This document shows, piece by piece, positions 9,644 to 13,967 of a DNA stretch of 33,383 bases. Below the pieces are notes generated by a model. The model worked only from the letters and a program-made list of their open reading frames with translations. It was not told where the DNA came from and made no database searches. Source of the stretch: Lachnospiraceae bacterium (GTDB lineage: Bacteria > Bacillota > Clostridia > Lachnospirales > Anaerotignaceae); contig SVDG01000003.1 of the NCBI GenBank assembly GCA_015057875.1, forward strand, positions 1 through 33,383, given 5' to 3'. The number at the start of each line of letters is the position of its first letter. Position 1 is the first letter of the stretch. The position numbers and the translations under genes were made by a program.

Positions 9644-9670
9644 AAAAAAGGGATCGTTTCCGATCCCTTT
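9644..9670 (-). terminator. Intrinsic terminator of the Trp-type ABC transporter operon
   Basis: AAAGGGATCG-TTTC-CGATCCCTTT; minus strand ends in a T-tract; abuts the stop codon. Confidence 0.85.
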
Positions 9671-10443
9671 CAATTGCCACACTCTATACTTATCTTTGTG
9701 AATATATCAAGTATGTCATCTACCTTTGTTGCTTTCTTTTCCTCTCCGTCCTTATCCATTATTATATGTCCTTTATCCATCATAATAAGACGGGAGCCAT
9801 ATTCCACAGCATACCTTAGGTTATGGGTGACCATCATGGCTGTAAGCTGTTTTTCTCTTACTACCTTATCTGTAAGCTCCATGATTATTTCCGCCGTTTT
9901 AGGGTCAAGGGCAGCCGTATGCTCGTCAAGTATAAGGAAATCAAGGGGTGTAAGAGTTGCCATAACGAGGGCAACAGCCTGTCTTTGTCCGCCTGATAAA
10001 GAGCCTATTTTTATATCCAGCTTATCCTCAAGGCCAAGGCCTAAAATCGAAAGCTGTTCCTTATAGAAGTTTATCCTTGATCTGTTTATGGCAAAGCTTA
10101 AACCGAAGCGTTTGCCCTTGTTATCCGCAAGGGACATATTTTCAAGTATAGTAAGCTCAGGACAAGTGCCGAGGGCGGGGTTCTGATAAACCCTGCCTAT
10201 ATGCTCATAACGTCTGAAGTCCTTTATTTTATTTATGTTTTTGCCGGAAATTATTACCTCGCCATCCTCAACAGGTATGCTCCCGCAGATTATATTGAGC
10301 AAAGAAGTTTTTCCGCTTCCGTTTGAACCTACTATGGAAACAAACTCGCCCTTTTTAATGGAAAGGTTAAAGTTATCAAAAAGGCAAACTTCCGTTATCT
10401 CTCCGGGGTTATATATTTTTGTTATATTTTTAAGCTCAAGCAT
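9670..10443 (-). CDS. ABC transporter ATP-binding protein (TrpXYZ-type importer)
   Basis: GSNGSGKTSLLN Walker A, LSGGQRQAVALVMA signature, LDFLILDEHTAALDP Walker B. Confidence 0.92.
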   Translation of the reverse strand: MLELKNITKIYNPGEITEVCLFDNFNLSIKKGEFVSIVGSNGSGKTSLLNIICGSIPVEDGEVIISGKNINKIKDFRRYEHIGRVYQNPALGTCPELTILENMSLADNKGKRFGLSFAINRSRINFYKEQLSILGLGLEDKLDIKIGSLSGGQRQAVALVMATLTPLDFLILDEHTAALDPKTAEIIMELTDKVVREKQLTAMMVTHNLRYAVEYGSRLIMMDKGHIIMDKDGEEKKATKVDDILDIFTKISIECGN

Positions 10444-11335
10444 GGTGTTTCACCTTACCCTTCCTGTTGTGGTTGCCCATTACAAGTATAATAAGGAACA
10501 TAATTGCTGTTACAAGGTTAAGAAGGTTTGCATCAAGGCCTAATGTAATGGCTATCATTATGCAGGCTTTATAAATAACAGCACCTACAATGGCCGCTGT
10601 TGTACCCTTAACAAAACCGAAGCGTTTAAAAATAGTTGAGCCGATTATAACAGCCGCAAGACCAAAAACTACCTGACCTGTACCCATTGTGTTTGAGAAT
10701 GCTCTCTGCTCATGGCATACAAGACAGCCTGCCGCCGCAACAAGGGCATTGGCTATAACAAGGCCTACTATCTTAACATTGCCGCTATCCTTGGCAAGCG
10801 TAGTAACAAGGCTTGAGTTATCGCCTACGGCACGCAGAAGAAGTCCGCTTTTTGTTTTAAAGTAAATATCAAGTATTATTTTTATAATGACAGCAATAAC
10901 AAGCGCCACTATAAGCTTGCGGTACATAAGTCCAAGATCGCCGAAAAGAGCCATAACGGGGCCAGATGTAAAGATCGTGTCAATCTCTCTTGGTATGATA
11001 AGGTTAGAGCCGCCTATTTTAAGATTTATTGAAAAAAGGGCAGTCTGAACGATTATACCGGAAAGAAGGTCTCTTATATTGAATTTGACGTGGATTATGC
11101 CTGTTGCAAGGCCAGCGACCGCTCCCGCTATCATTGCAGCGGGGATAGTAACAAAGGGATCAGCACCACTTGTCAATAAAACAGCTGTAACAGCAGCCCC
11201 CAGAGGGAAGCTGCCGTCAACTGTAAGGTCTGGAAAATCAAGTATTTTATATGTAATGTAAACACCGTAGGCAATAAGGCCGTATATAAGGCCCTGCGTA
11301 AGGGTGCTTACACAAAGGTCGAAAACAATATTCAT
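10436..11335 (-). CDS. ABC transporter permease (TrpXYZ-type importer)
   Basis: Multi-TM, LDFPDLTVDGSFPLGAAVTA (BPD_transp_2-like); overlaps the ATPase gene. Confidence 0.9.
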   Translation of the reverse strand: MNIVFDLCVSTLTQGLIYGLIAYGVYITYKILDFPDLTVDGSFPLGAAVTAVLLTSGADPFVTIPAAMIAGAVAGLATGIIHVKFNIRDLLSGIIVQTALFSINLKIGGSNLIIPREIDTIFTSGPVMALFGDLGLMYRKLIVALVIAVIIKIILDIYFKTKSGLLLRAVGDNSSLVTTLAKDSGNVKIVGLVIANALVAAAGCLVCHEQRAFSNTMGTGQVVFGLAAVIIGSTIFKRFGFVKGTTAAIVGAVIYKACIMIAITLGLDANLLNLVTAIMFLIILVMGNHNRKGKVKHHA

Positions 11336-11352
11336 AATAAAAACCTCTATTT

Positions 11353-12333
11353 TTACTGAGCATTAACAGCGATCGCTTTTTCTGCTATATCGGCAGGTAT
11401 CTCAACGGCAAATGCTGCCGCCGCATCATTATTTATATAAATCCCGTATTCTGTGATAGTTTCGTAAGGCATCTCGCTCGCTTTAGCCTCGCCTTTAAGC
11501 ACCTTAACTGCCATTGCGCCTGTCTGTTTGCCAAGCTCAAAATATTCAATACCTGCAGAAGCAACACAGCCTAAAACTACCTGTTCAACCTCGCTGCCGT
11601 AAACAGGGATACCCGCTTCATCTGTTTTTTCAAGGATAGATGCAAGAACGCCTACTACGTTGTTATCTGTAAGGTTTGAGAAACAGTCAACACCTTTAGC
11701 GATAAGTGTATCTGCGGCCTGTGTTGCCTGTGACTGCTGAGTGATACCGATCGCCTCAATAGCAAATCCGTAATCGGGAGCAAGCTCTTTATACTCTCTT
11801 ATGGCTGAAACAGAGTTGGGCTCGCTTTCTGTGTAGATGATACCGATAGTATCATCATCGGGCTGAAGGCTTCTTATAAGGTCAAGCTGTGCCGCAATGG
11901 GAAGCTTATCGCTTGTGCCCGTTACGTTGCCTTTATCAAGCTTTGCTTCAACGGGGTCTGTGATAGCTGTGAAAATAACTGGGATATCCTTATCCTCTGC
12001 CGCTGCATAGCAGGCTGTTGCGGAAGGAGTTGCGATGGCACACATTATATCAACATTCTGTGCTGAAAAGTTCTGTGCTATCTGTGTTGTTGTTGCATCG
12101 TTAAAGCCTGCGTTCTGATAATCTATAACAAAGTCCTCACCCTCAACAAGACCTGCATCCTTAAGGCCCTGGATAAAGCCCTCGCGGCAGTTATCCAAAG
12201 AAGCATGCTCGCCGTACTGAGAAATACCTATTTTGTAAGGGTTTGTTTTTGCTTCTTCTGTTGATGATGAACAGCCTGTTAAACAAGCTAATGATAAAAC
12301 TGATACTAAAGCTAAAGATAATAATTTTTTCAT
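11353..12333 (-). CDS. ABC transporter substrate-binding lipoprotein (TrpX-like, PF04392-type)
   Basis: Lipobox CLTGCSSS; YKIGISQYGEHASLDNCREGFIQGLKDAG..., PVIFTAITDPVEAKL; T-box leader upstream. Confidence 0.92.
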   Translation of the reverse strand: MKKLLSLALVSVLSLACLTGCSSSTEEAKTNPYKIGISQYGEHASLDNCREGFIQGLKDAGLVEGEDFVIDYQNAGFNDATTTQIAQNFSAQNVDIMCAIATPSATACYAAAEDKDIPVIFTAITDPVEAKLDKGNVTGTSDKLPIAAQLDLIRSLQPDDDTIGIIYTESEPNSVSAIREYKELAPDYGFAIEAIGITQQSQATQAADTLIAKGVDCFSNLTDNNVVGVLASILEKTDEAGIPVYGSEVEQVVLGCVASAGIEYFELGKQTGAMAVKVLKGEAKASEMPYETITEYGIYINNDAAAAFAVEIPADIAEKAIAVNAQ

Positions 12334-12384
12334 AATATATTCCTCCGGTTTTTATTATATTGGTATTGATCTGATTTAAAGAAT

Positions 12385-12423
12385 TTATATTAAGCTTCGC
12401 CATCGAAAATCCAGTATCATCAT
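12385..12423 (-). CDS. Candidate 12-aa leader sORF MMILDFRWRSLI (one Trp codon)
   Basis: Strong SD (TGGAGGAATAAAAT-ATG) after the T-box terminator; ATG ATG ATA CTG GAT TTT CGA TGG CGA AGC TTA ATA TAA. Confidence 0.4.
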   Translation of the reverse strand: MMILDFRWRSLI

Positions 12424-12445
12424 ATTTTATTCCTCCAGTCTAATA

Positions 12446-12714
12446 AAAAAAGTCTTATCCCACTAAAGGGACAAGACTTGAATATCCTGCGGTACCACCC
12501 AATTTGGTGAAAATATCACCCTCTTTTAATCGTACTTTAAATACGACCCGAATTTATAACGGGTACGGCTCCCGTCGGTTACTACTTGCCTTCGCTTTCG
12601 ACCGCCCTCATAAGTCCATTCACTTTAATCCCGCTACCGCACTCACACCACCGGCGGCTCTCTGAAAAACTTCGCTTAAAGCTACTACTCTTAATCACAG
12701 GTTTATTTTGTATT
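12446..12714 (-). promoter_or_regulatory. T-box riboswitch leader, probable Trp specificity (specifier TGG)
   Basis: Minus strand: GATTAAGAGTAGTA leader start, AGAGAGCCGCCGG, GTGAATGGACTTATGAG (specifier TGG at plus 12616-12618), T-box GGGTGGTACCGCAGGATATTC, terminator AAGTCTTGTCCC-TTTA-GTGGGATAAGACTTTTTTT. Confidence 0.9.
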
Positions 12715-12863: not shown

Positions 12864-13967
12864 TTATTCACCGAAAAGCGCTTTTGCAAAGCCTGCGGCA
12901 TCAAAGGGCTGAAGATCCTCTATGCCCTCGCCTACACCGATATATCTTACGGGTATGTTAAGCTCGTTTTTGATGGCGATAACGATACCGCCCTTTGCTG
13001 TTCCGTCAAGCTTGGTAAGGATTATGCCTGTTATATCGGCAACCTCTTTAAAAAGCTTTGCCTGCTGGAGCGCGTTCTGTCCTGTTGTTGCATCAAGCAC
13101 AAGCAGTACCTCACGGTTGGCATCGGGATATTCCCTTTCTGTTACCTTGGCTATCTTTTTAAGCTCCTCCATAAGGTTTTTCTTGTTATGGAGCCTTCCT
13201 GCGGTATCGCAGATGAGCACATCTGTTTTTCTTGTTTTGGCCGCATTTACAGCATCAAAAACAACTGCCGCAGGGTCGGTATTTTCCGCATGCTTTATGA
13301 CCTCTATGCCGCTTCTTTCTCCCCATACCTCAAGCTGGTCGATAGCCGCCGCCCTGAAGGTATCGGCCGCCGCAAGAAGGACTTTTCTTCCGTCCTTTTT
13401 AAGGTTGTTGGCAAGCTTGCCTATCGTGGTCGTTTTGCCAACGCCGTTAACACCTATAACAAGCACAACTGAGGGAGAAGGGAAAGAAAAATCATCGTCA
13501 CTTCCCTCTTCAAGCATAGCTGTTATCTCTTCAATAAGCATACCCTTTATTTCCTGAGGATCCTTTGTGCCCTCTCTCTTTACTCTTTTGCGTAGCCTGT
13601 CAACTATCTCAACCGTTGTGTTAACTCCGATATCCGCCATGATAAGTACCTCTTCAAGTTCCTCAAAAAGGTCCTCATCTATAGAAGAAAAGCCGCCAAG
13701 CACGCTGTCAACACCGCTTAAAATGCTCTTTCTTGTTTTGCCAAGGCCTTCTATAAGCCTGCCGAAAAAGCCTTTTTTCCTTTCGGGCTCAGCTTCCTCT
13801 TCTATCTCCTCTATCTCTTCGGCTATCTCTTCTCTTACTTCCTCAACAGCCTCTTCTATCTCTTCCTTTATTTCCTCAACAGCTTCCTTTAAATCTTCAG
13901 CTATTTCTTCAAGTATGCCCTCATTTTCAGGCTCCTCGTTCTTTTTAAAAAAATTAAAAAGTCCCAT
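12864..13967 (-). CDS. ftsY: Signal recognition particle receptor FtsY
   Basis: GVNGVGKTTTIGKLA, DTFRAAAIDQL, DTAGR, TKLDGTAKGG, IGVGEGIEDLQPF; Glu-rich N-terminal A-domain. Confidence 0.96.
   Translation of the reverse strand: MGLFNFFKKNEEPENEGILEEIAEDLKEAVEEIKEEIEEAVEEVREEIAEEIEEIEEEAEPERKKGFFGRLIEGLGKTRKSILSGVDSVLGGFSSIDEDLFEELEEVLIMADIGVNTTVEIVDRLRKRVKREGTKDPQEIKGMLIEEITAMLEEGSDDDFSFPSPSVVLVIGVNGVGKTTTIGKLANNLKKDGRKVLLAAADTFRAAAIDQLEVWGERSGIEVIKHAENTDPAAVVFDAVNAAKTRKTDVLICDTAGRLHNKKNLMEELKKIAKVTEREYPDANREVLLVLDATTGQNALQQAKLFKEVADITGIILTKLDGTAKGGIVIAIKNELNIPVRYIGVGEGIEDLQPFDAAGFAKALFGE

What the first reader, a model, noticed from the sequence alone, without database searches (positions are those of the whole stretch)
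12385..12423. Possible Trp-containing leader peptide (MMILDFRWRSLI) between the T-box and the transporter
After the T-box terminator there is a strong SD (GGAGGAATAAAAT) and an ATG opening a 12-codon ORF with one UGG codon. The trpX-like gene starts 51 nt after its stop with a near-identical SD context (GGAGGAATATATT-ATG). A translated sORF here would be a second Trp-sensing layer: ribosome stalling at UGG could change access to the second SD. Alternatively it is a decayed duplicate of the gene's own initiation region.
Basis: partly seen in the sequence, partly recalled or inferred. Interest (0 to 1): 0.6.

Follow-up and report, generated by a model that had tools for sequence, protein, structure and literature searches.

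The report
Conserved tryptophan-codon leader peptide before trpX
Between a tryptophan-tRNA-sensing RNA switch and a tryptophan-uptake operon, this bacterium and more than twenty relatives carry a tiny gene whose eighth codon is nearly always tryptophan, which looks like a second tryptophan-starvation sensor and which, in sister genera, is replaced by an apparent binding site for the tryptophan-sensing protein TRAP.

Summary
Confirmed, and more than chance. The sORF (12423..12385, minus strand, MMILDFRWRSLI*) lies just after the terminator of a Trp (UGG-specifier) T-box, before trpXYZ. In 23 non-redundant trpX loci from several Clostridia families the same place holds a Shine-Dalgarno-led sORF with the core [R/K]-R-W. 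UGG is codon 8 in 18 of 23, although residues 2-5 are unrelated. The codon before UGG is always the rare CGA; the Arg codon after it wobbles, or the ORF stops there. Dinucleotide shuffles give about 1 UGG-sORF per 57 leaders against 23 observed. Two paralogues whose T-box now specifies Phe have lost the UGG sORF. Sister genera that lack it carry (G/U)AG-repeat arrays like TRAP sites over the trpX SD, and their genomes encode TRAP. The sORF is therefore a real, selected, Trp-related leader peptide; the 'decayed duplicate' reading fails. How it acts on trpX is not shown: no conserved hairpin hides or frees the trpX SD, so the proposed SD-access switch is unsupported. Ribosome stalling at UGG8 under Trp starvation, helping downstream expression (perhaps through mRNA protection), is likeliest but inferred. 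Closest precedent: the T-box plus Trp-codon leader peptide of B. subtilis rtpA (anti-TRAP).

The parts
12464..12707 (-). T-box leader RNA, Trp specifier UGG at 12616-12618
   Evidence: Rfam RF00230, 122.8 bits, full length
12445..12479 (-). T-box terminator hairpin and U-run (AAGUCUUGUCCC..GGGAUAAGACUUUUUUU)
   Evidence: read from sequence
12432..12436 (-). Shine-Dalgarno of the sORF (GGAGG)
   Evidence: sequence, 8 nt from ATG
12385..12423 (-). leader peptide sORF MMILDFRWRSLI*, UGG as codon 8
   Evidence: conserved in 23 trpX loci; shuffles
12400..12405 (-). invariant core CGA-UGG (codons 7-8)
   Evidence: CGA before UGG in 22 of 22 and in L051; CGA is 2.5% of Arg codons in the window's genes
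12342..12346 (-). Shine-Dalgarno of trpX (GGAGG)
   Evidence: sequence
11353..12333 (-). trpX-like substrate-binding lipoprotein
   Evidence: PF04392 1.1e-60; NCBIfam TrpX 1.1e-69 but below its equivalog cut-off, 235 against 390 bits
10436..11335 (-). ABC permease (trpY-like)
   Evidence: PF02653 4e-23
9670..10443 (-). ABC ATPase (trpZ-like)
   Evidence: PF00005 1e-26

Best explanation
The sORF is a functional Trp-codon leader peptide, a second charged-tRNATrp sensor in series with the T-box. Step 1 (established T-box logic; the elements are present here): uncharged tRNATrp lets RNA polymerase pass the T-box terminator. Step 2 (inferred): ribosomes load on the strong SD just after the terminator, translate seven codons, are slowed by the rare CGA codon and stall with UGG8 in the A site when Trp-tRNA is scarce. 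Step 3 (inferred, least certain): the stalled ribosome raises trpXYZ output, most likely by protecting or keeping open the start of the read-through mRNA (as with stalled ribosomes in erm leaders) rather than by opening a hairpin over the trpX SD. In related TRAP-bearing genera without the sORF, an apparent TRAP site over the trpX SD occupies the same position.
For: SD-led sORF at the same place in 23 loci, core [R/K]-R-W, UGG at codon 8 in 18; shuffles give about 1 per 57 leaders. Codon 7 is CGA in every case although CGA is rare; codon 9 uses CGA/CGC/CGT/CGG or is a stop (CAT in L051). Between L026, L027, L030 and L049 the first 9 codons differ only synonymously. The shifted ATGGCG frame is not kept (MA* in L027, L033, L039). 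Five loci add a further UGG within three codons (L032, L049, L062, L076, L091). Two paralogues with a Phe (UUC) T-box, sister to UGG/sORF loci, lost the UGG sORF. CGA is slow in his-leader assays (PMC4046918).
Against: No expression, ribosome-profiling or reporter data. Only one UGG in most loci; classical Trp leaders have two or three. No conserved downstream structure. In L049 and L051 the sORF runs into the trpX start, where a stall could lower trpX translation. The sORF is missing from several Trp T-box trpX loci (for example L037, L060, L068, L069), so it is dispensable in some lineages.
Confidence: 0.6

Rival explanations
1. Nascent-chain arrest peptide: the M-x4-[R/K]-R-W peptide itself, at a fixed length of 7-8 residues, acts in the exit tunnel together with Trp-tRNA or another ligand, so the sensor is peptide plus codon and not just a hungry UGG.
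For: Fixed spacing and conserved R/K6-R7 before W8 are more than a hungry-codon sensor needs; in three loci the ORF stops right after W, so codons 1-8 suffice.
Against: Residues 2-5 are unrelated; codon 7 is conserved as a codon (CGA), not only as Arg; L076, L091, L054, L051 and the window have V, G, G, E and F before the Arg.
Confidence: 0.2
2. RNA-level element: CGAUGG(CG) is an RNA or protein binding site and its lying in a sORF is incidental.
For: CGATGG is invariant at the nucleotide level (23 of 23), and where an Arg follows it is CGN, never AGR.
Against: Every copy has an in-frame SD-ATG 5-10 codons upstream; the third base of codon 9 varies freely; the downstream CG is absent in L050, L051, L052 and L057; codon 6 varies as R/K (AGA, AAA, AGG, AAG, CGG).
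Confidence: 0.1
3. SD-access attenuator as first proposed: stalling at UGG frees the trpX SD from a hairpin (rtpA or erm type).
For: Architecture like the B. subtilis rtpA leader; L031, L058 and, slightly, the window show lower SD pairing once the stalled footprint is removed.
Against: No structure shared among 21 leaders; the gap to trpX is mostly AU-rich, 58-103 nt from UGG, and in most loci SD pairing is unchanged.
Confidence: 0.12
4. Decayed duplicate of the trpX initiation region, no function.
For: Similar SD context (GGAGGAATAAAATATG and GGAGGAATATATTATG) in the window.
Against: That similarity is a generic strong SD; the conserved part is codons 6-9, kept in 23 loci against about 1 expected.
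Confidence: 0.03

Closest known systems
B. subtilis rtpA/yczA (anti-TRAP) leader: Trp T-box followed by a Trp-codon leader peptide (Chen and Yanofsky 2003, 2004; cited in PMC11255114 and PMC4027176, details from memory)
   Same: Trp T-box, then a short SD-led ORF with Trp codon(s), then the regulated gene; both transcription and translation respond to uncharged tRNATrp (PMC4027176)
   Different: Here the target is the trpXYZ transporter; usually one UGG fixed at codon 8 in an [R/K]R(CGA)-W context; no leader-SD overlap or sequestering structure seen; different bacteria
Trp T-box of Streptococcus suis trpXYZ (PMC9382623)
   Same: Trp T-box (UGG specifier) over a trpXYZ operon, induced at low Trp
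   Different: No leader peptide is reported there
Proteobacterial trp/his leader-peptide attenuators
   Same: Short ORF with regulatory codons ahead of amino-acid genes
   Different: No alternative terminator after the sORF was seen here; no Pfam or NCBIfam match for the longer peptides
Macrolide-arrest +X+ leader peptides (ErmDL type; from memory)
   Same: R-x-R motif at codons 7-9
   Different: Three loci end at W without the second R; the gene is a Trp transporter under a Trp T-box
TRAP (MtrB) control by (G/U)AG repeats over an SD
   Same: Found here in sister genera at the same place in the trpX leader
   Different: Absent from the window's leader, and no TRAP gene found in its 85%-complete genome

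Membership tests
Trp-codon leader peptide (rtpLP-like, tandem with a T-box) | Trp T-box directly upstream | tested here: met
   RF00230 122.8 bits, specifier UGG; tRNA response not tested
Trp-codon leader peptide (rtpLP-like, tandem with a T-box) | Short SD-led ORF with in-frame Trp codon(s), conserved | tested here: met
   23 loci, UGG at codon 8 in 18
Trp-codon leader peptide (rtpLP-like, tandem with a T-box) | Several tandem Trp codons | tested here: not met
   One UGG in the window; two in 5 of 23 loci
Trp-codon leader peptide (rtpLP-like, tandem with a T-box) | Ribosome position controls the SD of the next gene | tested here: inconclusive
   stop-to-ATG 51 nt; predicted folds show no conserved sequestering structure, but no experiment
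Trp-codon leader peptide (rtpLP-like, tandem with a T-box) | Translation or stalling responds to Trp-tRNA charging | not testable with these tools
   needs ribosome profiling or reporters
Transcription attenuator (trpL type) | Terminator/antiterminator pair after the leader ORF | tested here: not met
   no hairpin plus U-run between sORF and trpX in the window; no common fold
TRAP-regulated leader | Array of (G/U)AG repeats 2-3 nt apart | tested here: not met
   window has one repeat; array present in 12 sister loci
TrpX (NCBIfam NF041285 equivalog) | score above cut-off | tested here: not met
   235 against 390 bits; Trp specificity rests on the T-box

The most novel reading that the evidence does not exclude
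A previously undescribed family of Trp-sensing arrest leaders, M-x4-[R/K]-R(CGA)-W(UGG), in which the slow CGA in the P site, the basic nascent peptide and the UGG codon act together as a starvation-triggered ribosome trap just after a T-box terminator, and which is evolutionarily interchangeable with a TRAP site as the second control layer on trpX.
Probability: 0.3. Interest if true: 0.78.

Novelty: new variant of a known kind. Interest (0 to 1): 0.62.

Why it matters
Tandem sensing of the same uncharged tRNA by a T-box and a leader peptide is known to me only from B. subtilis anti-TRAP. Here it appears on a nutrient transporter across several Clostridia families, with a codon-level core (CGA-UGG at codons 7-8) that can be mutated one base at a time. 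The swap with a TRAP-site-like array in sister genera, and the loss of the UGG sORF in paralogues whose T-box switched to Phe, make the trpX leader a natural experiment on how layered amino-acid control evolves.

Tried and rejected
Shifted reading frame starting at the ATGGCG inside CGATGGCG: not conserved (MA* in L027, L033, L039). SD-sequestering hairpin: no common fold. UGGC pairing with the tRNATrp 3' end: the C after UGG is absent in L050, L052 and L057. Random occurrence: shuffles. The same sORF behind other T-boxes: none in the window's genome; in the order-level pattern search only trpX leaders of 8 genomes matched, though that pattern is modelled on the trpX T-box. Known peptide family: no Pfam or NCBIfam match. 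A family search around an Oscillospiraceae genome gave only two close TrpX, both already held. A first automatic pass missed L051 because its motif search matched TGGCATCGC inside the sORF; corrected by eye.

Full report
What is there. On the minus strand the order is ftsY (12864-13967), T-box (12707-12464, RF00230, 122.8 bits, specifier UGG), terminator and U-run, sORF (12423-12385), then substrate-binding protein, permease and ATPase (11353-12333, 10436-11335, 9670-10443). The SBP is PF04392; its NCBIfam TrpX score (235 bits) is below the equivalog cut-off (390), so 'trpX' rests on the family match plus the Trp T-box. The sORF is MMILDFRWRSLI* with GGAGG 8 nt from the first ATG, exactly as reported. 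The window's genome is an 85%-complete assembly; relatives held in its family match named Anaerotignum and Chakrabartyella contigs.

Conservation. TrpX homologues were taken from 58 genomes of the family and from a scan of 84,980 species genomes, and the stretch between T-box and trpX start was read in each. Twenty-two loci found automatically, plus L051 found by eye, carry an SD-led sORF with an in-frame CGA-TGG. Examples: MNQTGRRWRSH, MKLPGRRWRS, MREKEKRWRSFC, MILLTRRWRGI, MFIMSRRWR, MFVLSRRW, MRRLTKRW, MKRTERRWRG, MDLRQVRWRRWRRSS. Counting from the first ATG, UGG is codon 8 in 18 of 23 (others 6, 7, 9, 10, 11). Residues 2-5 have nothing in common across lineages, and the part after codon 9 varies from nothing to more than 20 residues, so selection is on the first 8-9 codons. 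Dinucleotide shuffles of 57 leaders give 1.0 UGG-bearing SD-ATG sORF on average (max 4 in 200) against 23, and 0.01 with UGG8 after CGN against 18; these loci are related, so the numbers are not a formal probability. That count of 23 holds L078 (MFKTAGMWPGG, a distant relative) and lacks L051.

Coding versus RNA. The codon before UGG is CGA in all 23, though CGA is 11 of 439 Arg codons in the window's genes and at most 17% locally elsewhere. The codon after UGG is CGA 8, CGC 5, CGT 4, CGG 2, stop 3, and CAT in L051, so its third base is free. Codon 6 is mostly R or K through AGA, AAA, AGG, AAG, CGG. L026, L027, L030 and L049 share MNQTGRRWR with only synonymous differences. So the peptide is coding, with an added codon-level demand at codon 7. 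In Salmonella his-leader assays CGA was among the slow Arg codons, and Arg-Arg pairs with CGA gave strong de-attenuation (PMC4046918), which fits a slow step just before UGG. That this holds in Clostridia is inference.

Link to tryptophan. The sORF loci have a UGG-specifier T-box. L059 and L063, paralogues in the same two assemblies as the sORF loci L050 and L055 and their sister pair in the TrpX tree, have UUC (Phe) specifiers; both have lost the UGG sORF, L059 keeping SD-ATG with MSKFI*. Two cases in one clade count as one event, but the direction is as expected. Five loci add a second UGG within three codons.

Replacement by a TRAP-like site. In genera g3, g4 and g6 of the same family, 12 leaders without the sORF have on average 8.4 (G/U)AG repeats in the 95 nt before trpX, with 40 repeat pairs spaced 2-3 nt against 10.1 in shuffles (max 21 of 1000), reaching over the trpX SD. 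TRAP (PF02081) was found in all 12 of those genomes. Family members without a TRAP hit (g1 window, G010, G014, G016, G021) show no such pairs; G021, a single-contig genome of g6, has the sORF instead. Genus g2 has TRAP and the sORF but no array, and G768 (L057) also has both TRAP gene and sORF, so the exclusion is at the leader, not the genome. Absence of TRAP from the window's genome is uncertain at 85% completeness. TRAP binding itself is not shown.

Ancestry. In the TrpX tree the sORF occurs on many branches of a 50-row clade and in none of the 7 outgroup rows (L051 is labelled 'none' there but has it). The simplest reading is that it is old in this clade, replaced by TRAP sites in Anaerotignum-like genera and lost in the Evtepia group and others. 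Some spread by horizontal transfer is likely because the clade is patchy.

Mechanism. Shown: position, coding, conservation, codon-level core. Inferred: translation in vivo, stalling at UGG8 under Trp shortage, and the sign of the effect. Folding 21 leaders gives no shared structure; the trpX SD is not consistently paired, and removing the stalled-ribosome footprint changes little in most. I therefore do not support the SD-access switch as stated. A stalled ribosome near the new 5' region could protect the mRNA; this is by analogy with erm leaders and is the weakest step. In L049 and L051 the sORF overlaps the trpX start, which would make stalling harmful to trpX translation unless the effect is on mRNA.

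Known or new. B. subtilis rtpA has a T-box and a Trp-codon leader peptide in tandem (Chen and Yanofsky 2003, 2004, cited in PMC11255114; [quoted passage not shown] The S. suis trpXYZ T-box paper mentions no leader peptide (PMC9382623), nor does a survey of T-box transporters (PMC2494555). Literature searches in the open library found nothing on this peptide; subscription papers were not searchable. I file it as a new variant of a known kind.

Noticed in passing
L017-L020, L022, L024, L025, L028, L029, L034-L036 (95 nt before trpX): Apparent TRAP-binding (G/U)AG arrays overlapping the trpX SD downstream of a Trp T-box, in genomes that encode TRAP: a possible T-box plus TRAP double control of trpXYZ.
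   Followed up: yes
L059 and L063, leader of SBP paralogues: T-boxes with a Phe (UUC) specifier over close TrpX paralogues; the UGG sORF has decayed, and L059 keeps SD-ATG MSKFI* with a UUC codon. Suggests a switch of transporter specificity to Phe.
   Followed up: partly
L114, L121, L118 (T-box trpX leaders at 50-51% TrpX identity): Trp-bearing SD-led sORFs of another sequence (MSLADGWRS..., GTG-start ...ADGWRF..., MVGWWKINIKYGK) at the same place, perhaps more distant versions of the leader.
   Followed up: partly
L049, L051: The sORF continues to overlap the trpX start (ATGA), so it may be translationally coupled to trpX there.
   Followed up: no
L069:1380-1476 (-): azaaromatic (yjdF) riboswitch, 80.2 bits, close to the Trp T-box on the opposite strand.
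   Followed up: no
L002 (own genome C2:7801-8796): Second TrpX-like SBP (39% identity) with no T-box motif found upstream.
   Followed up: no
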